From positions 1,449,001-1,513,000 of the forward strand of contig NZ_CP139957.1 in the NCBI RefSeq assembly GCF_034343125.1: a DNA stretch of 64,000 bases. Direction: 5' to 3'. The translations under genes and the position numbers were made by a program. Origin of the DNA: Caldicellulosiruptor danielii (GTDB lineage: Bacteria > Bacillota > Thermoanaerobacteria > Caldicellulosiruptorales > Caldicellulosiruptoraceae). Under the pieces are notes generated by a model. The model ran no database searches and was not told the DNA's origin. It saw only the letters and a program-made list of their open reading frames with translations. This document shows positions 5,378 to 51,172 of the stretch, piece after piece. Positions within the stretch are counted from its first letter, which is position 1, and each line of letters begins with the position of its first letter.

Positions 5378-7916
5378 ACCAGTTCAGCCCTTCTTTCACC
5401 TCAACCACCAGAGGCACTTTTAGAGCTACTGCATTTTCCATCTCTCTTTTTACTATCTCCTTTACTATATCCTTTTCTTCGTATGGGGCTTCAATTAAAA
5501 GCTCATCGTGTACCTGCAAAATTATTTTTGATCTAAGATTATTTTCCTTGAGCCTTTTATATACTTTAATCATTGCCAATTTCATGATATCAGCAGCGCT
5601 GCCCTGAATTGGCGAATTCATTGCAATTCTTTCAGCATAGCCCCTTAGATTTCTGCTTGTAGATTTTATGTCCTTTATATATCTCTTTCTGTTAAACAAA
5701 GTCAAAACAAATCCATTATCACGAGCAAACTTAACAGTGTTATCTAAATACTCTTTAACTTTGGGATAACGCTCAAAATACTTGTTTATAAACTCTGCAG
5801 CTTCTTTTCGCGAAATTTTTACATCCCTTGCAAGGCCATAATCAGAAATCCCATAAACTATACCAAAATTCACTGCTTTAGCTTGACTTCTCATCTCTGG
5901 AGTAACATTGGCTATGTCTACACCAAAAACCTCAGCTGCTGTCTGCGAATGGATGTCAACATTATTTTTGAAAGCATTAATAAGTCTTTCATCCTCAGAA
6001 ACATGGGCAAGTATTCTCAGCTCAATTTGGGAATAATCTGCATCAATCAGTACATGTCCTTCTTCAGGTATAAAAACCTTTCTTATCAACTTTCCCTCAT
6101 CATATTTTACAGGTATGTTTTGTAAATTAGGATCGCTACTTGCCAGTCTTCCTGTGGCTGTACCTGTTTGGATAAAGGTTGTATGAACTCTGCCCGAAGA
6201 AGGATTTATTGCTTGAAGTAATCCCTGACAGTAGGTTGTTAGTATCTTTGTATACATCCTGTAGTCCAGAATAAGAGGAACTATTTCATGTTTGTCAAAA
6301 AGCTCTTCTAAAACCTCGGCATCGGTTGAGTATCCAGTTTTTGTCTTCTTTATAACAGGAAGTCTTAGCTTTTCAAATAAAATATAAGAAAGCTGTTTGG
6401 GCGAGTTTATATTAAACCACTCACCCGCAATCTGGTATATCTGCCTCTCAAGCTTTAATATTTTGCTCTCAATCTCTTTGGTATACTGAAGCAGGGCATC
6501 TCTGTCCACCTTAAATCCTGTTTTTTCCATCTCATATAGAATTGGTATAAGAGGACCTTCTATATTCTTATACACAAACTGGCAAGAATTTAAATCAATC
6601 AATCTCAAAAGTTCACTCCACAATTGTTTTAACAAAACTACCGAAACCATCTTTTTATCTTTTTTGACAGCTTCTACATCAGTGTTCAAGTAGGATATAA
6701 ACAATGTTTCTAATTCATATGAACTTCTTGTGCTGTCAAGAACATAAGAAGCAATCATTACATCCTCGCAATTTTTAATATTATCTGTGTCTTTCAAGTT
6801 GAGTTGATGAAATATATTTTTTAAATCATATACAATTTTCACAGTGTCACTTTTTAAAATCTCCTCTACCAAATGTCTATTCCTGGTCATAAACACAGCA
6901 TTACTTTCTTGATCATACAAATAAAAACACTTCTCGTCCTGTACAAACATTAATGAAATCTCTTTTGATTTTATTTGTGAAATATTTTCAAGCTCTCTTT
7001 GTTCTACGTCAGGAATATCAGTTTGTTGCTGGACAAATTCAAATTGAACCACTTTTGATAGCCCTAACCGTTTTATTATACTCTTGAACTCTAACTGGAC
7101 CAAAATATCATATAACCTTTCCTTGTTCCACTCTCTTATCCTTAAGTCTTCAAGTTTAACATTTAATGGCAGATCACATACAATTGTTGCTAAGCGCTTG
7201 GATAAAAACGCTATGTCTTTACCTGCTTCAAGCTTTTCTCGGATAGAACCTTTAATTTTATCTAAATTTTGGTATATCTCCTCTAAAGATGAGTACTCCT
7301 CCAAGAGTTTCTGGGCACTCTTTTCGCCAATTCCCTTCACCCCGGGAATGTTATCTGACTGGTCTCCAACAAGCGCTTTATAATCAGGTACTTGATTTGC
7401 CCAAACTCCATATTTTTCTTTTATATTTTCAATGGTGTACAAATCTTCAAATGTCCTGTCAAACTTCGTCGAGACAATCTTTACAACCACGTTTTTGTCA
7501 AGTAACTGAAGAGTATCCCTGTCACCTGTAATAATAACAATATCCAAATCAGAATTTTTGAACTGGTTAACAAGTGAGCCAATTACATCATCTGCTTCAT
7601 ACCCTTCAAATTCAACAATTGAAATGTTGAGTGCATAAAGAATTTCTCGAACATAAGGAATTTGTACTTGAAGGTTATCTGGCATAGGTTTTCTGTTAGC
7701 TTTGTATTGTTGGTACTCGCTCTTTCGTGCCTCTCTTCCTCTCTTGTCAAACGCTACAGTAACATAATCAGGTTTTTCTTGTTCTAAATATTTTAAAATC
7801 ACATTTATAAACCCATAAATAGCATTTGTTGGAATATTGTTTGAGGTTGTCAGTTCAGGAAGAGCAAAAAAAGCTCTGTACAAAATGCTGTTTCCATCAA
7901 ATATAACTAATTTCAT
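5364..7916 (-). CDS. polA: DNA polymerase I, proofreading-deficient type
   Basis: DNA polymerase I fills gaps in repair and Okazaki fragment processing. At 850 aa it has three regions: the N-terminal 5'-3' exonuclease (FDGNSILYRAFFA at the start, ITGDRDTLQL metal site, helix-hairpin-helix GVKGIGEKSA), a middle 3'-5' exonuclease-like domain, and the polymerase domain. The last shows motif A DADYSQIELR, the O-helix RSQAKAVNFGIVYG and motif C QVHDELL. The middle domain lacks the DxE metal-binding motif (FVQDEKC at the expected place), so proofreading is predicted lost, as in Taq and Bacillus stearothermophilus PolA. It overlaps the upstream 430-aa gene by 4 nt. Confidence 0.98.
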   Translation of the reverse strand: MKLVIFDGNSILYRAFFALPELTTSNNIPTNAIYGFINVILKYLEQEKPDYVTVAFDKRGREARKSEYQQYKANRKPMPDNLQVQIPYVREILYALNISIVEFEGYEADDVIGSLVNQFKNSDLDIVIITGDRDTLQLLDKNVVVKIVSTKFDRTFEDLYTIENIKEKYGVWANQVPDYKALVGDQSDNIPGVKGIGEKSAQKLLEEYSSLEEIYQNLDKIKGSIREKLEAGKDIAFLSKRLATIVCDLPLNVKLEDLRIREWNKERLYDILVQLEFKSIIKRLGLSKVVQFEFVQQQTDIPDVEQRELENISQIKSKEISLMFVQDEKCFYLYDQESNAVFMTRNRHLVEEILKSDTVKIVYDLKNIFHQLNLKDTDNIKNCEDVMIASYVLDSTRSSYELETLFISYLNTDVEAVKKDKKMVSVVLLKQLWSELLRLIDLNSCQFVYKNIEGPLIPILYEMEKTGFKVDRDALLQYTKEIESKILKLERQIYQIAGEWFNINSPKQLSYILFEKLRLPVIKKTKTGYSTDAEVLEELFDKHEIVPLILDYRMYTKILTTYCQGLLQAINPSSGRVHTTFIQTGTATGRLASSDPNLQNIPVKYDEGKLIRKVFIPEEGHVLIDADYSQIELRILAHVSEDERLINAFKNNVDIHSQTAAEVFGVDIANVTPEMRSQAKAVNFGIVYGISDYGLARDVKISRKEAAEFINKYFERYPKVKEYLDNTVKFARDNGFVLTLFNRKRYIKDIKSTSRNLRGYAERIAMNSPIQGSAADIMKLAMIKVYKRLKENNLRSKIILQVHDELLIEAPYEEKDIVKEIVKREMENAVALKVPLVVEVKEGLNWYETK

Positions 7917-9205
7917 CTTCTATCTTCCCTCTCATTAATTCTTAAAAGTTCTTCTTTTTTGAATGAGTAGTTGTTTTTATAAAAGTATTTGCGCTCAAAA
8001 TCATAGTATAAAAACAATAAAGCCTTTAAGTCATTGCTTGTTTTATAGCAACTCAAATCTTCATAGTAGTTGAAGAAAAACCTATACAGCTCATAACAAA
8101 TATATATTGTTAGGGCTTCATTTGGATACATTCCATTCTCAAATTTTCTATCAAACTCTTCTATATTCATCAAAGTCTCATCTGTAAAAAATTTGTAGTT
8201 TCTTATAACATGCCATTCTGTCTCATCAATGAGTCTCTCAATAGAAGTTCTTATTTCTTTTCCTGTCAAAGAACAAAGCTTAGCATAAAGAAGTAAAATA
8301 TAAGGCAGATGATAATAGGTTTTTATTTGAGTTAACATAAGATTTTTATTGTAAAAGTTAAAATAAATATTTTCATTTGAGGATAATTGTTCTATTTTTT
8401 CTTTAAGACTTAAAATTTCACTTTTACTAAGCTCGTTAGAAATTTTTATATAATAAAAACTGGAAGATTGTAACGAGGATGTATATGAAAGCTCGAAATT
8501 TATAAGCTTTCTGGGCAGATATAAAAAATAAAGTTTTAACATTCTTGCTGGAACACCAATTGATAATTGATACCTTCTCGCAATGTCCATTTTCGAATAC
8601 TTCATAATATCTACTATACCAAAGTACTTTGGATTGTTTGCCAGTTCTAAATTAAGTTCTGCTTCAAAAGATTTCAATTTGGGATTGACGTTTTCAACGC
8701 AATCATAAATTGAACTTCCTTTCTGTACCTTGACTTCTATTTTTATATTTGAGCCTTTTTTTATCCTCGACATCGGTAGTAAATTTTGAAAACAAAAACT
8801 ATTATTTGTCTCATCTATCCAGAACGAATGGAAAAACCCTATACACAATAAGTTTTCTTTTATCTTTGTGGCAAATCTCAAATATATTTTATCCAGTTGT
8901 AAAACACCACAAACTTTTAATAGAAAAAACGATTCTTTAGTTCTCAAAAGAATAATTTGTGTATTCGAGTTATTACACACAAGTCCTTTCTTTCCTCTTT
9001 GAAGCCTTGGCATAAAAACAATTTCTGCTTCTTTAAGGTCAAAAGCCACTCCTATGTTATTAACTTCACAGCTGTCAGTAAAAGAAAGCTTTGCAGAAAA
9101 ACCATCCTTTTCATTTACGACTTCATACGAAACTTTTTTCAAACCTCGACCAGCTTGTGTGAATTCATCGTTTAAAAAAATATATGAAGGAATGTTTGCT
9201 ATCAT
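7913..9205 (-). CDS. Uncharacterised 430-aa protein at the head of the polA operon
   Basis: I do not recognise this protein. It is 430 aa with no signal peptide, no clear transmembrane helix and no nucleotide-binding or metal-binding motif that I can name. The N-terminal half (about 1-190) looks beta-rich. The C-terminal half (about 260-420) is helical and rich in Tyr, Phe, Leu and Lys, with many acidic clusters. The start is ATG, preceded by AGAGGT about 10 nt upstream. Its stop overlaps the polA ATG by 4 nt (ATGA), so it is translationally coupled to polA. That hints at a DNA-metabolism or housekeeping role, but gene order alone cannot show function. Confidence 0.75.
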   Translation of the reverse strand: MIANIPSYIFLNDEFTQAGRGLKKVSYEVVNEKDGFSAKLSFTDSCEVNNIGVAFDLKEAEIVFMPRLQRGKKGLVCNNSNTQIILLRTKESFFLLKVCGVLQLDKIYLRFATKIKENLLCIGFFHSFWIDETNNSFCFQNLLPMSRIKKGSNIKIEVKVQKGSSIYDCVENVNPKLKSFEAELNLELANNPKYFGIVDIMKYSKMDIARRYQLSIGVPARMLKLYFLYLPRKLINFELSYTSSLQSSSFYYIKISNELSKSEILSLKEKIEQLSSNENIYFNFYNKNLMLTQIKTYYHLPYILLLYAKLCSLTGKEIRTSIERLIDETEWHVIRNYKFFTDETLMNIEEFDRKFENGMYPNEALTIYICYELYRFFFNYYEDLSCYKTSNDLKALLFLYYDFERKYFYKNNYSFKKEELLRINEREDRR

Positions 9206-23856: not shown

Positions 23857-24528
23857 CTAAATTTCAAACTTATAACCCACACCCCAAACAGTCTTTATCT
23901 TCCATGGATATTTATCTTTTTCAATCTTTTCTCTTATTCTTTTGATATGTACATCAACTGTACGAGTGTCTCCAACAAAGTTGTAACCCCATATATGGTC
24001 AAGAAGTTGTTCACGGGTAAACACCTTGTTAGGATGTGACGCTAAAAAATATAAAAGCTCTATTTCTTTCGGTGGCATATCTATTATTTTGTCTTCAAGC
24101 TTCACTTCGTATGTAGTGAGATTTACTGTGAGATTTGGATACACAACCACCTTTTCGTCATTTACCTCACCCTGTGTTCTTCGCAGCACTGCTTTTATGC
24201 GGGCAATTAGTTCTTTTGGATCAAACGGTTTTACAATATAGTCATCTGCTCCCAACTCTAATCCAAGTACCTTATCAAATGTCTCTCCCTTTGCAGTGAG
24301 CATTATAATTGGAATGTTACTAATCTTTCTAAGTTCTCTACAGACTTCATATCCATCTTTTTTGGGAAGCATAATGTCCAGTATTACAAGGTCGGGCATT
24401 TCATTTTTGAACATAGCAATTCCATCCATACCATTGTGAGCAACCACCACTTCAAACCCTTCTTTTTCTAAGTAGAGTTTTATTACCTCACATATCTTTA
24501 TATCATCATCAATGACAAGGATCTTCAT
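23857..24528 (-). CDS. OmpR/PhoB-family response regulator (WalR/ResD-like)
   Basis: DNA-binding response regulator of 223 aa. The receiver domain has the acidic pair DDD near residues 7-9, phospho-acceptor Asp in LVILDIMLPKKDG (about residue 52), the switch Thr in IIMLTAKG and Lys in IVKPFDPKEL. The C-terminal winged helix ends with RTVDVHIKRIREKIE and IKTVWGVGYKFEI. It is followed by its kinase and htrA in the order RR-HK-HtrA, which recalls WalR-WalK-HtrC neighbourhoods. I cannot separate WalR from ResD or PhoP-like by sequence alone. Confidence 0.95.
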   Translation of the reverse strand: MKILVIDDDIKICEVIKLYLEKEGFEVVVAHNGMDGIAMFKNEMPDLVILDIMLPKKDGYEVCRELRKISNIPIIMLTAKGETFDKVLGLELGADDYIVKPFDPKELIARIKAVLRRTQGEVNDEKVVVYPNLTVNLTTYEVKLEDKIIDMPPKEIELLYFLASHPNKVFTREQLLDHIWGYNFVGDTRTVDVHIKRIREKIEKDKYPWKIKTVWGVGYKFEI

Positions 24529-43580: not shown

Positions 43581-44758
43581 TTTAAATCCTCCAATATATA
43601 CGTTTTTGCACCATCTTCATTTACATACATAAATCTTTTAACTTTCATACTTTTGCTAATAATAAAAGCTTCTTCTATATTTGCTGGTAATGTATGAAAA
43701 TAGATTTTCTGGCTTTTGTTATTAGAGTTGAGAAGAAGTTTCAACGCCATTTCAAAGTACCCTTCCTTATAAAAAACAAGGTTATCGTATAACTTATCAT
43801 TCCTTGGGGTATTTTTTAATTTCCACTCTAAAATTCTGTCTACACCAATTGCAAATCCAATGGCATACAGTTTTCTACCAAATATTTCGCACAAATTATC
43901 GTATCTTCCACCATTTAATACAGGATAGCCAAGTTTTTGCAAATAGCCCGAGAATATTATACCTGTGTAATAGTTCAGATGTTTTACCATTCCAAAATCA
44001 ATAGTAATATAATTTTGGTAACCCATTTTTACCATATTATTGTATATTTCGCTCAGTCTCTCTATCGCCAGTTTAGACATTTCATTGTTTGCAAATTTTT
44101 TTGCCTCTTTTATCTTATCCTCTCTACCATAAAGTCTTGTGAGGCTTCTGAAAACATCTATCACCTTTTGGGAAATACCTTTTCGAATCAAAAAGTTTTC
44201 AATCCCTATATAATCCTTCTTGTCAACAAGCTTGCAGAGCACTTCTGATGAGGTCTCGTCAATCTCAAAATCTTTAGCAATTCCCTTAAAGAAATTTACC
44301 TCACCAACATCAATTGTAAAATTATTCACGCCGAGTTCAAGTAAACTTTCCACCACAAGCACTAATACCTCTAAGTCTATATAAAAACTATCAGATGTAT
44401 GAAAGTTTTCTATGCCTGCTTGAAAAAATTCCCTTAAATCTCCAGCTTCCTGCTGAAGAAACTGATATGCCTTGCCAAAGTAACACAATTTGAGCGGATA
44501 AACATTTGTTTGAAGCTTAGAAGCAATCTCTGCAACTTTTGGAGTAAATTCATTTCTCAAGGCAATTACAGTTCCATCGCTGTCCATAAACTTTATAGTG
44601 TTACTCCCATTTAAGCTTTTTGACTTTTCATAATCTTCAAAAGTTGAAGGTTCAACCAGTCTGTACCCAAATTTTTTAAACAAAAAGATAGTCTTTTTTC
44701 TTATCTCTTCCAAGGTATCAGACACTGGAGGATAGTAATCCACACACTTTTTGCTCAT
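43577..44758 (-). CDS. hisZ: ATP phosphoribosyltransferase regulatory subunit
   Basis: HisZ is a catalytically dead histidyl-tRNA synthetase paralogue that forms the hetero-octamer with short HisG and gives feedback control. It is 393 aa, with class II synthetase motif 1/2 remnants (LRNEFTPKVAEIASK, YFGKAYQFLQQEAGDLREFFQAGIENF) and a late GGRYDNLCEIFGRKLYAIGFAIGVDRI. It lacks the anticodon-binding domain of true HisS, which confirms the call. First gene of the his operon. Confidence 0.96.
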   Translation of the reverse strand: MSKKCVDYYPPVSDTLEEIRKKTIFLFKKFGYRLVEPSTFEDYEKSKSLNGSNTIKFMDSDGTVIALRNEFTPKVAEIASKLQTNVYPLKLCYFGKAYQFLQQEAGDLREFFQAGIENFHTSDSFYIDLEVLVLVVESLLELGVNNFTIDVGEVNFFKGIAKDFEIDETSSEVLCKLVDKKDYIGIENFLIRKGISQKVIDVFRSLTRLYGREDKIKEAKKFANNEMSKLAIERLSEIYNNMVKMGYQNYITIDFGMVKHLNYYTGIIFSGYLQKLGYPVLNGGRYDNLCEIFGRKLYAIGFAIGVDRILEWKLKNTPRNDKLYDNLVFYKEGYFEMALKLLLNSNNKSQKIYFHTLPANIEEAFIISKSMKVKRFMYVNEDGAKTYILEDLK

Positions 44759-44815
44759 CTTTTTCTTCCTTTCATTACTTTATCATAATGAAGCGATGAA
44801 TAGATATCATGTTAT

Positions 44816-44844
44816 ATTATATTACAAAAGATCTGAAAAAGCAA
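44816..44844 (-). promoter_or_regulatory. Promoter of the his operon
   Basis: On the minus strand TTGCTT (44839-44844) and a perfect TATAAT (44816-44821) are 17 nt apart. The predicted start is near 44809, 50 nt before the hisZ ATG. The leader is too short for a T-box and shows no His-codon leader peptide. Confidence 0.7.
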
Positions 44845-44882
44845 CAAAAAAGTGGAGCCATTATTTAAACACAAGGCCCCAC
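44845..44882 (-). terminator. Rho-independent terminator after the QueT-like gene
   Basis: GTGGAGCC (44852-44859) pairs with GGCCCCAC (44875-44882), eight bp with one G-U in the minus-strand RNA, followed by six T. It directly abuts the -35 of the his promoter. Confidence 0.85.
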
Positions 44883-44894
44883 ATGTTTAAAATT

Positions 44895-45434
44895 TTATAA
44901 AAGTTTTTTGCCATTTAGCTGTTTTTCAAGTTCAATAAATAAAGGCAGACCTAAAAAGTATGTGGCAATTGCCTCTCCCATCCCAATAGAAATTACTGTA
45001 AAAAGATATCTGACAATTGGACTTAAATTTTTTAACCATTCAATTTTCAAGCTGTCTATAAAATATTGCCATATATAAGATGATACAACCACAGCATTTA
45101 CTATAACAGTAGGCAGAGGTAAAAAAGGTTTTTTCTTTATTCTGGTTGTAAGCAGCGCAGCTGCCAGTGTCGCAAGAGAACCAAAAATAACATCATATAT
45201 GCCTGTTATACTCACTACCATACCATACAAGTTTGCTAAAAAACACCCCACAAACAGACCAATGGTGGCTGAAATTGGCATCATGGCAGGAAGAAGAGTT
45301 AGAGCCTCTGATATTCTTATCTGCAGTGGTCCATATGATATAGCTGGCAAAAACGCGGTTAAAACAAAATATAGCGCTGCAATCAGGGCAGCCCTTGCAA
45401 TTACTCTACTGTCAATCTCAATTTTCTTTTTCAC
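44895..45434 (-). CDS. queT: QueT-family membrane protein (putative queuosine-precursor transporter)
   Basis: A 179-aa membrane protein with about five TM helices. The N-terminal ARAALIAALYFVLTAFLPAISYGPLQIRISEALTLLPAMMP is the QueT/DUF988 signature, an S-component of ECF transporters predicted to import a queuosine precursor. The start is probably GTG at 45434: it overlaps the phoU TGA as GTGA and has GGGAAGAG about 8 nt upstream. An ATG 27 nt earlier has a poorer SD. No preQ1 riboswitch is seen because it has no leader of its own; it is apparently co-transcribed with pstB-phoU. Confidence 0.85.
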   Translation of the reverse strand: MKKKIEIDSRVIARAALIAALYFVLTAFLPAISYGPLQIRISEALTLLPAMMPISATIGLFVGCFLANLYGMVVSITGIYDVIFGSLATLAAALLTTRIKKKPFLPLPTVIVNAVVVSSYIWQYFIDSLKIEWLKNLSPIVRYLFTVISIGMGEAIATYFLGLPLFIELEKQLNGKKLL

Positions 45435-46108
45435 TTTGTTTTCTCTTCCCTGCCTTCCCATTCATGTTTATGCATACCTGTTATCTTGTACACAACCCAC
45501 TCGGCTATGTTGGTAGAATGGTCTGCAATTCTCTCCAAGTATTTAATAACCAACAAAAATTGGATACACTGGGAAACTGCTGCCGAATTTTCTTTCATTA
45601 TTTGCTCAAGCTCATCAATAAGGTTTTGATACATTGTGTCAACCAAATCATCACGCTTTACAACAGACTTTGCAAGTTCTATATCAGAATTTACATATGA
45701 ATCTAAAGCATCTTTCAACATCGAACGAGTGATTTCAGCCATTTTAGGAATGTCAATTAAAGGTTTTACATAATCCTCTTTTGCAAGCTTGAGTGTTATC
45801 TGAGAGATATCCTCTGCGTGATCTGCAATCCTTTCAATATCTGTTGCAATTCTCATTGCAGTTATTATGAGCCTTAGGTCGCTTGCAAGTGGCTGCTGGG
45901 TGGCAATAACAATAGCACATTTTTTCTCTATCTCTTCTGTAAGCTCATCAATCTTATCATCGTTATCTATTATTCTCTGCGCAAGTTCAACATCTTTTGT
46001 CTTAAGTGCCAAAATTGCTTTGTTTATAGCCTCTTCTGCCATAGCTCCCATCTTGAGAATATCAAGATGGATTTCTTTGAGCTCATTTTCAAATGTTGGT
46101 CTTGTCAT
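45431..46108 (-). CDS. phoU: PhoU phosphate-signalling protein
   Basis: PhoU links the Pst transporter to the PhoR kinase and represses Pho signalling when phosphate is high. It is 225 aa, made of two three-helix bundles with the repeated metal-binding E/DxxxD patterns (IDNDDKIDELTEEIEK and VVKRDDLVDTMYQNLIDEL; RIADHAEDISQ and RIADHSTNIAEW). It starts 27 nt after pstB and overlaps the queT-like gene by 4 nt at the preferred GTG. Confidence 0.97.
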   Translation of the reverse strand: MTRPTFENELKEIHLDILKMGAMAEEAINKAILALKTKDVELAQRIIDNDDKIDELTEEIEKKCAIVIATQQPLASDLRLIITAMRIATDIERIADHAEDISQITLKLAKEDYVKPLIDIPKMAEITRSMLKDALDSYVNSDIELAKSVVKRDDLVDTMYQNLIDELEQIMKENSAAVSQCIQFLLVIKYLERIADHSTNIAEWVVYKITGMHKHEWEGREEKTK

Positions 46109-46135
46109 ATCGAAAATTCACCTCTCAACATATAA

Positions 46136-46885
46136 TTATCCGAACCTGCCGGTAATATAGTCCTCTGTTCTTTTGTCCCGTGGAGTATTAAATATAGTGA
46201 TTGTCTTGTCAAATTCTATAAGCTCTCCATTTAAGAAAAATCCTGTGAAATCAGAAATTCGAGCAGCCTGTTGCATATTGTGAGTAACTATTATTATTGT
46301 GTAGTTTTTCTTAAGCTGCTCTAAAAGCTCCTCTATCTTTAATGTTGAAATTGGGTCAAGGGCAGATGTTGGTTCATCAAGCAAAATTACCTCAGGCTCG
46401 ACTGCCAAAACCCTTGCAATACAAAGTCTTTGCTGCTGACCTCCAGAGAGTGAAAATGCACTTTTTTTCAGCCTATCCTTTACTTCGTCCCACAGATAGG
46501 CTTTTTTAAGACTGTTTTCTACAATCTCATCAAGTACTTCTTTCTTTTTAATACCATGAATTCTTGGCCCATACGCTACATTGTCATATATGCTCATTGG
46601 GAATGGATTTGGTTTTTGAAATACCATTCCAATTTTTTTTCTGAGTGTGATAACATCAATCTCTTTGTAGATGTCTTTGCCTTCAAAATATACATTTCCT
46701 TCTATTTTAACGTTTTCAATAAGGTCATTCATTCTATTTAAGGTCCTCAAGAAAGTAGATTTTCCACAGCCAGATGGTCCTATTAATGCAGTAATAGCTT
46801 TTTCGTTTATCTTTATGTTTATATTTTTCAGAGCATGGTTTTCACCATAATATAGATTCAAATCCTTTGTTTCTATTATTACCAT
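46136..46885 (-). CDS. pstB: Phosphate ABC transporter ATP-binding protein
   Basis: PstB is the ATPase of the PstSCAB phosphate importer. It is 249 aa. Walker [11 protein letters not shown]-loop [21 protein letters not shown] (the PstB-specific [10 protein letters not shown]), signature LSGGQQQR, Walker [13 protein letters not shown] and the switch His in [10 protein letters not shown] are present. No pstS, pstC or pstA is next to it: upstream is the divergent DUF47-pit pair. A clear Pho box lies upstream. Confidence 0.97.
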
Positions 46886-46944
46886 CTTGAAGCAACCTCT
46901 CCCTACTTTTTGATAGCTTCAACTTATATATTTTATAACTCTAA

Positions 46945-46984
46945 CATTAAATTCTTGTTTAATGTATGTTAAAACTGTGTTAAA
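46945..46984 (-). promoter_or_regulatory. Pho box: four direct repeats with 11-bp period upstream of pstB
   Basis: On the minus strand, TTTAACA (46984-46978), TTTAACA (46973-46967), TTAAACA (46962-46956) and TTTAATG (46951-46945) follow one another at exactly 11-bp steps. This is the architecture of Bacillus PhoP sites (TTAACA-like repeats with about 5-bp spacers on the coding strand). A TATAAA-like -10 follows about 10 bp downstream, before pstB. PhoP-PhoR are encoded at 48743-51172. Confidence 0.72.
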
Positions 46985-47108
46985 TATTATATAATATTCT
47001 TTGTGTGATGTAAAACTTTTTATAAAGTTCGCAGGATTGATAAATAAAAATCTCTTCTATTAAAATGGTCTTTGTGACAAAAATTCTACAAAGAAGGGGT
47101 TGTGAAAT

Positions 47109-47735
47109 ATGTGGAGTATAATTCCAAAAGAAAATCAGTTTTTTGTTTTATTAGAAAATGCTGTTGAAAATGCTTATCAATCAGCAGTGATGTTAAATCA
47201 GCTCCTCAATAACCTCTCAAATATGCATGAGCTAATCTCAAAGCTTGAAAAAGCTGAAAACAATGGGGATGATATTACCCACCAAGTGATTGAACTTCTC
47301 AACAAAACTTTTATCACACCTCTTGACAGAGAAGATTTGTTTGCAATAATCAAAGAGATTGACAACATTGTCGATTCGCTCGAAACAGTTGCTCATAGAT
47401 TTGAAATCTATAACGTAGACACCGTCAAGCCTGAGGCAAAGATCCTATCAGAGATGATCATAAACTGCACAAAAGAATTAAAAGGAGTTGTGGAAAACTT
47501 AAAGGATTTAAAAAATACCAAACTCATAAAAGAAAAAATAATAGAAGTAAATAGAATTGAAGATGAAGGTGATATTGTGTACAGAAACGCAATCAAAAAA
47601 CTTTTTGTCAAAAATAGGGACAAGCCTATCGAAGTAATTATCTGGAAAGAAATTTATGGCTTTTTGGAAGACACGCTTGATGCGTGCGAAGATGTAGCAA
47701 ATGTAATAGAAGGAGTTGTGACAAAAAATGCATAA
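47109..47735 (+). CDS. DUF47/PhoU-like protein paired with Pit
   Basis: A 208-aa all-helical PhoU-like protein of the DUF47 (YkaA) family, commonly encoded before a Pit transporter and thought to regulate it. Visible are FFVLLENAVENAYQSAVML, NGDDITHQVIELLNKTFITPLDREDLFAIIKEIDNIVDSLE and VNRIEDEGDIVYRNAIKKLF, with the repeated acidic E..GD/D...DD metal motifs. The SD is AAGGGG. It overlaps pit by 8 nt. A 7-bp hairpin (TCTTTGT/ACAAAGA) lies just before the SD. Confidence 0.9.
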   Translation: MWSIIPKENQFFVLLENAVENAYQSAVMLNQLLNNLSNMHELISKLEKAENNGDDITHQVIELLNKTFITPLDREDLFAIIKEIDNIVDSLETVAHRFEIYNVDTVKPEAKILSEMIINCTKELKGVVENLKDLKNTKLIKEKIIEVNRIEDEGDIVYRNAIKKLFVKNRDKPIEVIIWKEIYGFLEDTLDACEDVANVIEGVVTKNA

Positions 47736-50473: not shown

Positions 50474-51172
50474 TTACTCAGACCTTTCATTAAACCTGTA
50501 TCCTACGCCCCTGACCGTTTCTATGTAACGCGGATTTTTCTCATCGTCCTCAAGTTTTCTCCTCAAAAACCTTATGTGTACATCAACAGTTCGTGTATCT
50601 CCATCAAACTCATATCCCCATACCCTTTGCAAAATAAAGTCTCTGTCCAATACCCTGCCTCTATTTTCGATAAGAAGCTTCAGAAGCTCAAATTCTTTGA
50701 ACGAAAGAGATACATCCTGATTATTTTTCCTGACAGTTCTTTTTGAAAAGTCTACTTCTACATCTCCAAACTTGACTTTATCTTCAATCTCAGACTTTAA
50801 ACTCTCAACTCTTCTCAAAAGCGCCTTCACTCTTACAACCAGCTCTTTTACACTAAAAGGCTTTGTTATATAGTCATCTGCACCAAGCTCAAGCCCAAGT
50901 ATCTTATCAATTTCTTCAGATTTTGCAGACAGCAAAATCACTGGTAGATTCTTTGTATCTTTGTTAAATCGAATTTCTTTTAAAACTTCATATCCGTCCT
51001 TGTCACTCATCATAATATCAAGTATGACAAGGTCAACTTTGTTATGCTTTAAAATCTCCAGTGCCAGTACTCCACTGTCTGCTTCAAATGTATTATATCC
51101 TTCTTTTCTAAGATTAAATCTAAGAAGCTCAAGAATATGCTGCTCATCATCAACTATTAAAATATTCTTCAT
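50474..51172 (-). CDS. phoP: OmpR-family response regulator PhoP/PhoB
   Basis: A 232-aa response regulator. The receiver has acidic DDE near residue 8, phospho-Asp in LVILDIMMSDKDG, switch Ser in ILLSAKS and Lys in ITKPFSVKEL. The winged-helix DNA-binding domain ends with GDTRTVDVHIRFLRRKLEDD and IETVRGVGYRF. With phoR, the nearby Pho box and phosphate transporters, the Pho role is well supported by context. The gene starts right after pgeF ends (0-nt gap). Confidence 0.93.
   Translation of the reverse strand: MKNILIVDDEQHILELLRFNLRKEGYNTFEADSGVLALEILKHNKVDLVILDIMMSDKDGYEVLKEIRFNKDTKNLPVILLSAKSEEIDKILGLELGADDYITKPFSVKELVVRVKALLRRVESLKSEIEDKVKFGDVEVDFSKRTVRKNNQDVSLSFKEFELLKLLIENRGRVLDRDFILQRVWGYEFDGDTRTVDVHIRFLRRKLEDDEKNPRYIETVRGVGYRFNERSE

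What the first reader, a model, noticed from the sequence alone, without database searches (positions are those of the whole stretch)
46945..46984. Four perfectly phased TTAACA-type repeats form a Pho box for pstB-phoU
Seen: TTTAACA, TTTAACA, TTAAACA and TTTAATG at exact 11-bp steps on the strand of pstB. Known: Bacillus PhoP dimers bind TT(A/T/C)ACA repeats about 11 bp apart. PhoP and PhoR are encoded 2-5 kb away. Inference: pstB-phoU-queT belongs to the Pho regulon, and the divergent DUF47-pit pair may be affected as well.
Basis: partly seen in the sequence, partly recalled or inferred. Interest (0 to 1): 0.5.

Follow-up and report, generated by a model that had tools for sequence, protein, structure and literature searches.

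The report
Phosphate-starvation promoter for pstB-phoU
A row of four short, evenly spaced DNA words in front of the pstB-phoU genes is almost certainly the docking site of the cell's phosphate-starvation regulator PhoP; it is a conventional switch, but comparing it across relatives shows a small set of genes that carry the same switch, including an unexpected chemotaxis receptor.

Summary
The repeats are there exactly as described (46984-46945, minus strand): TTTAACA, TTTAACA, TTAAACA, TTTAATG at 11-bp steps. The array scores 25 of 28; 0 of 5000 resamples of the intergenic region reach that, and only period 11 does. The same four-repeat pattern occurs 40 times in 12 same-genus genomes, its reversed control 0 times. 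In this genome arrays precede pstB-phoU, pstS-pstC-pstA, pstS2-phoA and a chemotaxis-receptor gene. In all 47 orthologous promoters of these four operons the last repeat is followed by exactly 9 nt and a TANNNT -10 element; here TTAGAGTTA then TAAAAT. The same 9-nt spacing dominates best-scoring arrays in pst loci of other bacteria (18 of 27). This is the standard PhoP-activated promoter layout. Its side remark, that divergent DUF47-pit may be affected, is not: that pair has its own conserved promoter candidate, and the array lies about 90-130 bp upstream of its predicted start. A near-consensus promoter abuts the array on the pstB side, invariant in 12 of 12 genomes, suggesting a basal/starvation promoter switch. 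No binding or expression was tested. New member of a known kind; modest interest.

The parts
46945..46984 (-). Pho-box array: four 7-mers at 11-bp steps (46984-46978 TTTAACA, 46973-46967 TTTAACA, 46962-46956 TTAAACA, 46951-46945 TTTAATG)
   Evidence: conserved in 12 of 12 genus genomes
46930..46935 (-). predicted -10 element TAAAAT of the starvation promoter (P2), exactly 9 nt (46944-46936) after the last repeat; predicted start about 46923
   Evidence: 9 nt + TAAAAT/TATAAT in 12 of 12 pstB promoters; same spacing in the other operons
46986..47014 (-). candidate second promoter P1, TTTACA-N17-TATAAT (11 of 12 consensus matches), ending 1 bp before the array; predicted start about 46979, inside the array
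   Evidence: such matches are no rarer in shuffles; invariant hexamers and spacing in 12 of 12 genus genomes; not found at this place in sister genus G012
46136..46885 (-). pstB (249 aa), phosphate ABC transporter ATPase
   Evidence: TIGR00972 429.3 bits, cut-off 343.2
45431..46108 (-). phoU (225 aa)
   Evidence: TIGR02135 225.4 bits, cut-off 130.25
44895..45461 (-). queT-like membrane protein (188 aa), ORF overlaps the end of phoU; probable last gene of the operon
   Evidence: PF06177; no terminator-like site found in 44700-45000
47037..47066 (+). candidate promoter of divergent DUF47-pit, TTGATA-N18-TAAAAT; predicted start about 47073
   Evidence: matching form in 11 of 12 genus genomes (read from the alignment, G007 lacks it) and TTGATT-N18-TATAAT in G012
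47109..47735 (+). DUF47 / PhoU_div protein (208 aa), PitR-like
   Evidence: PF01865
47728..48726 (+). pit-type phosphate transporter (332 aa)
   Evidence: PF01384
48743..50470 (-). sensor histidine kinase, PhoR/PnpS-like (575 aa)
   Evidence: best NCBIfam PnpS 387.3 bits, under its cut-off of 400
50474..51172 (-). OmpR-family response regulator, the presumed PhoP (232 aa)
   Evidence: no equivalog cut-off passed; best PDB sequence match RegX3

Best explanation
The array is a PhoP box that makes pstB-phoU(-queT) a phosphate-starvation promoter. When phosphate is scarce the neighbouring kinase phosphorylates the PhoP-like regulator, PhoP~P dimers line up head to tail on the four 11-bp repeats (about -61 to -22 of the predicted start), and hold RNA polymerase on a -10 element placed exactly 9 nt downstream, where no good -35 match exists. 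The same layout switches on pstS-pstC-pstA, pstS2-phoA and a chemoreceptor gene. Shown: the repeats, their conservation, the fixed 9-nt geometry and the gene set. Inferred: that PhoP is the protein that binds, that binding activates, and that low phosphate is the signal.
For: (1) 40 hits of the four-repeat pattern in 12 genomes, 0 of the reversed control: 12 before pstB, 12 before pstS, 9 in the pstS2-phoA upstream region, 6 before the chemoreceptor, 1 before a BtrH-like gene in G007 (places set). (2) Exactly 9 nt then TANNNT: pstB 12 of 12, pstS 12 of 12, chemoreceptor 11 of 11, pstS2-phoA 12 of 12 (11 as printed, G007's row read by eye because the run was extended too far). (3) Second, divergent pstB-phoU copies in G001, G004, G005: 3 of 3 with the array, 9 nt and TATTAT. 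(4) Sister genus G012: eight repeats before its pstS2, 9 nt, TACAAT; TTTAACA/TTTAACA/CTAAAAT/TTTAATA, 9 nt, TATCAT before its pstB (read by eye). (5) In 80 pst loci of other taxa, best arrays of score 16 or more: 27 forward, 7 reversed control; TANNNT at spacer 9 in 18 of 27, next best spacer 4 of 27, control 0 of 7. (6) Gene order pgeF-phoP-phoR / pit-DUF47 / array / pstB-phoU kept in 12 of 12 genus genomes and G012. (7) B. subtilis PhoP consensus TT(A/T/C)ACA-N4-6-TT(A/T/C)ACA (PMC12404567, passage; PMC3036859, passage) is met by repeats 1 and 2.
Against: Repeats 3 and 4 depart from the published consensus. The regulator passes no PhoB/PhoP equivalog cut-off, and another OmpR-type regulator of the same genome scores higher against the PhoB model (248.6 against 233.0). 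Six OmpR-type regulators exist in this genome. The genus genomes are close relatives, so their conservation is not 12 independent events. No other array of score 22 or more exists in the window, so phoPR itself shows no strong Pho box. No binding or expression data.
Confidence: 0.92

Rival explanations
1. Two promoters share the site: a housekeeping promoter P1 (TTTACA-N17-TATAAT, 47014-46986) gives basal pstB-phoU in rich phosphate, and PhoP bound to the array from about -5 to +35 of P1 shuts P1 while opening P2. This extends the best explanation rather than replacing it.
For: P1 matches consensus at 11 of 12 positions. Both hexamers, the 17-nt spacer and the 1-bp gap to the array are invariant in 12 of 12 genomes, inside and next to a 41-nt invariant run while flanks vary. 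Among the pstS, pstS2-phoA and chemoreceptor upstream sequences printed, none shows a TATAAT directly before the array (by eye). Basal PhoU would be needed for signalling in rich phosphate (general knowledge).
Against: The scan finds as many such promoters in shuffles (2 found, mean 2.4). P1 is not at this place in G012. Close relatedness of the genomes.
Confidence: 0.35
2. The array is read by another OmpR-type regulator, above all WalR (YycF), whose consensus as I recall it (TGTWAH-N5-TGTWAH) fits the reverse complement of two of these repeats.
For: On the plus strand the array contains TGTTAAAACTGTGTTAA, an exact match to that recalled pattern. A WalR-like regulator exists elsewhere in the genome (YycF model 337.4 bits, cut-off 340).
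Against: The recalled pattern matches twice in the window with 0.88 expected. Most arrays precede phosphate genes (33 of 40), and the orientation and 9-nt spacing to the -10 fit activation of pstB, not of the opposite strand.
Confidence: 0.05
3. PhoP on this array also controls the divergent DUF47-pit pair (repressing low-affinity uptake in starvation).
For: Shared intergenic region kept in all 13 genomes. A palindrome, 46983-46998, carries TATAAT on both strands, so a plus-strand start beside the array cannot be excluded. PhoP acts on some pit genes elsewhere (pitH2 of Streptomyces is PhoP-dependent; PMC7866108, passages).
Against: A separate DUF47-pit promoter candidate recurs in 11 of 12 genomes and in G012, placing the array at about -128 to -89 of its predicted start. 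The pap-pitH1 pair of Streptomyces is not bound by PhoP (PMC7866108).
Confidence: 0.15
4. Chance repeats in an AT-rich intergenic region.
For: The region is 74% A+T.
Against: 0 of 5000 resamples, 0 in five random genomes; 40 hits against 0 control hits.
Confidence: 0.005

Closest known systems
Bacillus subtilis PhoP box (Pho core binding region), TT(A/T/C)ACA-N4-6-TT(A/T/C)ACA
   Same: Direct repeats on the coding strand, four repeats at 11 bp, directly upstream of the -10 element, before pst and phosphatase genes.
   Different: Repeat word here is TTTAACA; repeats 3 and 4 are degenerate; pstB-phoU has its own array separate from pstS-pstC-pstA.
E. coli PhoB Pho box (two 11-nt units of 7 conserved and 4 loose bases; PMC4415409, passages)
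   Same: 7+4 architecture, tandem head-to-tail subunits, site overlapping the -35 region.
   Different: Different 7-mer (CTGTCAT in E. coli per that paper); four or more units here rather than two.
WalR (YycF) box
   Same: Two repeats read on the opposite strand fit the recalled TGTWAH-N5-TGTWAH.
   Different: Gene set and orientation are those of a phosphate regulon.
S. aureus PitR-PitA and PhoU as accessory regulators of PhoPR (PMC13170248, passages and section 5)
   Same: A PhoU-family gene beside pit and a phoU beside pstB, both next to phoPR here.
   Different: There the control is on PhoPR activity; nothing here tests it. That DUF47 equals PitR is my inference.

Membership tests
PhoP box of Firmicutes | direct repeats close to TT(A/T/C)ACA separated by 4-6 nt | tested here: met
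   repeats 1-2 exact (TTAACA-N5-TTAACA); repeats 3-4 differ at 1 and 2 of 6 positions
PhoP box of Firmicutes | four repeats in 11-bp phase | tested here: met
PhoP box of Firmicutes | fixed place just upstream of the -10 element on the coding strand | tested here: met
   9 nt + TANNNT in 47 of 47 orthologous promoters; spacer 9 in 18 of 27 outside loci
PhoP box of Firmicutes | precedes known phosphate-starvation genes | tested here: met
   pstB-phoU, pstS-pstC-pstA, pstS2-phoA
PhoP box of Firmicutes | a PhoP/PhoR pair is encoded | tested here: inconclusive
   OmpR-type regulator and kinase adjacent, best models YycF/PhoB and PnpS, all below cut-off; RegX3 best in PDB
PhoP box of Firmicutes | binding by PhoP~P | not testable with these tools
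   needs gel shift or footprint
PhoP box of Firmicutes | phosphate-dependent expression requiring phoP | not testable with these tools
   needs RNA-seq or reporter
WalR box | TGTWAH-N5-TGTWAH (recalled) | tested here: met
   one exact match on the plus strand, but 2 matches in the window with 0.88 expected
WalR box | site in front of cell-wall hydrolase genes (recalled) | tested here: not met
   arrays precede phosphate and chemoreceptor genes, one BtrH-like gene apart

The most novel reading that the evidence does not exclude
One 40-bp PhoP array works as a two-way promoter selector: it closes an abutting constitutive promoter and opens a starvation promoter, so that pstB-phoU is always made but by different routes, while pstS-pstC-pstA, split off elsewhere in the genome, is made only in starvation; and the same regulon drives a dedicated chemoreceptor that lets the cells seek phosphate.
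Probability: 0.2. Interest if true: 0.5.

Novelty: new member of a known kind. Interest (0 to 1): 0.3.

Why it matters
It gives a clean predicted Pho regulon for a genus of AT-rich bacteria (probably the thermophilic anaerobe Caldicellulosiruptor; name recalled, not tested). My two searches that paired the name Caldicellulosiruptor with Pho terms listed no paper on its Pho regulon (listings only). It also gives a sharp, testable sequence rule (four 11-bp repeats, exactly 9 nt, then the -10) that recurs in pst loci of other taxa, and it nominates a phosphate-controlled chemoreceptor as a new regulon member.

Tried and rejected
Rejected: chance origin. Rejected: that every weak pattern hit is a regulon member. 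Of the nine hits of the three-repeat search, two lie outside the arrays, 1110824 and 1348102, in or at coding sequence, and I treat them as chance. Of the 15 hits, five weak ones (1110809, 75108, 1605319, 1675219, 2141887) were placed against ORFs and none sits before a recognisable phosphate gene; 85403, 584469, 1227263 and 2592306 were not examined; the other six fall at the four arrays. Rejected: my own early idea that the array overlaps the DUF47-pit promoter and represses it, after a recurring separate promoter candidate was found. Led nowhere: Rfam search of 44500-47300 (no match); protein-family scores to name the regulator; the first pattern, too strict for repeat 3, gave nothing; a strict 4-repeat scan of the 80 outside loci found only one locus with two arrays, so a weight matrix built from 20 of this genome's own 7-mers was used instead. 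The first alignment mixed orientations and was redone. Some DUF47-promoter rows printed for G002, G004 and G006 caught a different stretch; for these I rely on the alignment.

Full report
What was checked. The four 7-mers are present exactly where stated, on the minus strand, 46984 to 46945, in an exact 11-bp step, upstream of pstB. The array scores 25 of 28 against TTTAACA; 0 of 5000 resamples of the 223-bp intergenic region reach that (highest 22), other periods from 8 to 14 score at most 19, and five random genomes of the same size give none of 24 or more. In the window no other array scores 22 or more except its own shifted register at 23; the reversed control stops at 20.

The same array elsewhere. 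In the own genome a three-repeat search with up to 3 mismatches gave 9 hits (control 7); the three hits with two or fewer mismatches fall at this site and at one other place. That place precedes a PstS-family binding protein (TIGR02136, 263.8 bits, cut-off 206.6) followed by an alkaline phosphatase (PF00245). Another hit precedes pstS-pstC-pstA (PstS named, pstC and pstA named by me from the ORF starts). No pstB follows pstA in the ORF list, and no second pstB-like hit above 38% identity is listed for the own genome. The four-repeat pattern with up to 3 mismatches gave 40 hits in 12 same-genus genomes and 0 hits of the reversed control. I assign them as pstB 12, pstS 12, pstS2-phoA region 9 (three of them overlapping registers in G008), chemoreceptor 6, and one before a BtrH_N/DUF4872 gene in G007.

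Geometry. For the orthologous promoters of the four operons, taken by gene and not by pattern, the best array is followed by exactly 9 nt and TANNNT in pstB 12 of 12, pstS 12 of 12, chemoreceptor 11 of 11 (absent from G007 at the cut-off used) and pstS2-phoA 12 of 12, where the array has 5 to 10 repeats by a loose count (the G007 row was read by eye because the script ran on past the true end). Second pstB-phoU copies in G001, G004 and G005 show it in 3 of 3, and so do the G007 BtrH-like gene and two promoters of sister genus G012 (the G012 pstB one read by eye). If the -10 lies at -12 to -7, the four repeats lie at about -61 to -22, and the third repeat, the weakest in nearly all pstS and chemoreceptor promoters and in two of the three second pstB copies, covers the -35 region.

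Outside the genus. A named-genome scan returned 80 loci encoding PstB relatives. With a weight matrix from 20 seven-mers of the own genome, the best forward array per locus scored 16 or more in 27 of 80 loci against 7 of 80 for the reversed matrix, and among those 27 the element TANNNT stood at spacer 9 in 18, with no other spacer above 4; in the control 0 of 7. So the geometry is the common PhoP/PhoB-promoter layout, not a local invention.

Neighbourhood. The order pgeF-phoP-phoR, converging with pit-DUF47, then the array and pstB-phoU holds in 12 of 12 genus genomes and in G012; queT follows in the 12 but was not found in the G012 stretch. In G005 pstB is broken. The regulator is OmpR-type but below every equivalog cut-off shown; the kinase's best model is PnpS, 387.3 bits against a cut-off of 400. 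One of the other five OmpR-type regulators of the genome scores higher against PhoB (248.6 against 233.0), another is WalR-like and one KdpE-like. The best PDB sequence match of the regulator is RegX3, a phosphate-responsive regulator of mycobacteria (PMC12301784, abstract start seen in a listing). The name PhoP therefore rests on position and on the gene set more than on sequence scores.

Second promoter and the divergent pair. On the pstB strand a TTTACA-N17-TATAAT element ends one base before the array; hexamers and spacing are invariant in 12 of 12 genomes and the -10 belongs to a 41-nt invariant run. Promoter-like matches are no rarer in shuffles, and the element is not at this place in G012, so a basal-to-starvation promoter switch remains a hypothesis. 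For DUF47-pit a separate candidate, TTGATA-N18-TAAAAT, recurs in related form in 11 of 12 genomes (alignment) and as TTGATT-N18-TATAAT in G012; the array is then about 90 to 130 bp upstream of that start, in the wrong orientation for activation.

Known context. Passages of PMC12404567 and PMC3036859 give the B. subtilis consensus; PMC4415409 (passages) gives the 7+4 Pho-box unit; PMC3348028 (passages) describes PhoB sharing the -35 region with sigma; PMC7866108 (passages) reports that PhoP binds pitH2 but not pap-pitH1 in Streptomyces; PMC13170248 (passages and one section) treats PhoU and PitR as separate regulator clades. The WalR pattern is recalled.

Verdict. A genuine, conserved, conventional PhoP-box promoter. 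What is new is modest: the regulon list for this genus, the chemoreceptor as a member, and a possible two-promoter switch at pstB-phoU.

Noticed in passing
L093:12222-14228 (-), G000:C1:2793221-2795227: A HAMP/MCP-signal protein (chemoreceptor-like, 668 aa) carries the same array plus 9 nt plus TAAAAT; orthologs in 11 of 12 genus genomes keep it.
   Followed up: partly
L041:6226-8784, G000:C1:1170225-1172783: pstS-pstC-pstA stands without pstB, about 325 kb from pstB-phoU; each half has its own array.
   Followed up: yes
window 46983-46998: Perfect 16-bp palindrome AATATTATATAATATT overlapping the first repeat, invariant in 12 of 12 genus genomes; it carries TATAAT on both strands.
   Followed up: partly
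L094:7531-8580 and following, G007: A BtrH_N/DUF4872 gene with ABC transporter, FtsX and radical-SAM genes behind it carries an array, 9 nt and TATACT in G007.
   Followed up: partly
L047 (G005) near 7900-8679: pstB at this locus is broken in G005, which has a second pstB-phoU copy elsewhere with its own array.
   Followed up: partly
L044, L045, L046: Second pstB-phoU copies in G001, G004, G005 next to genes resembling a Ppx-type and an EAL-type protein (by eye from the ORF list).
   Followed up: no
window 23866-24084: A second OmpR-type regulator lies in the window and scores higher against the PhoB model than the presumed PhoP.
   Followed up: partly
L129 2909 and 4062: Thermohalobacter berrensis has arrays before both its pstS and its next gene, pstC by position.
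   Followed up: no
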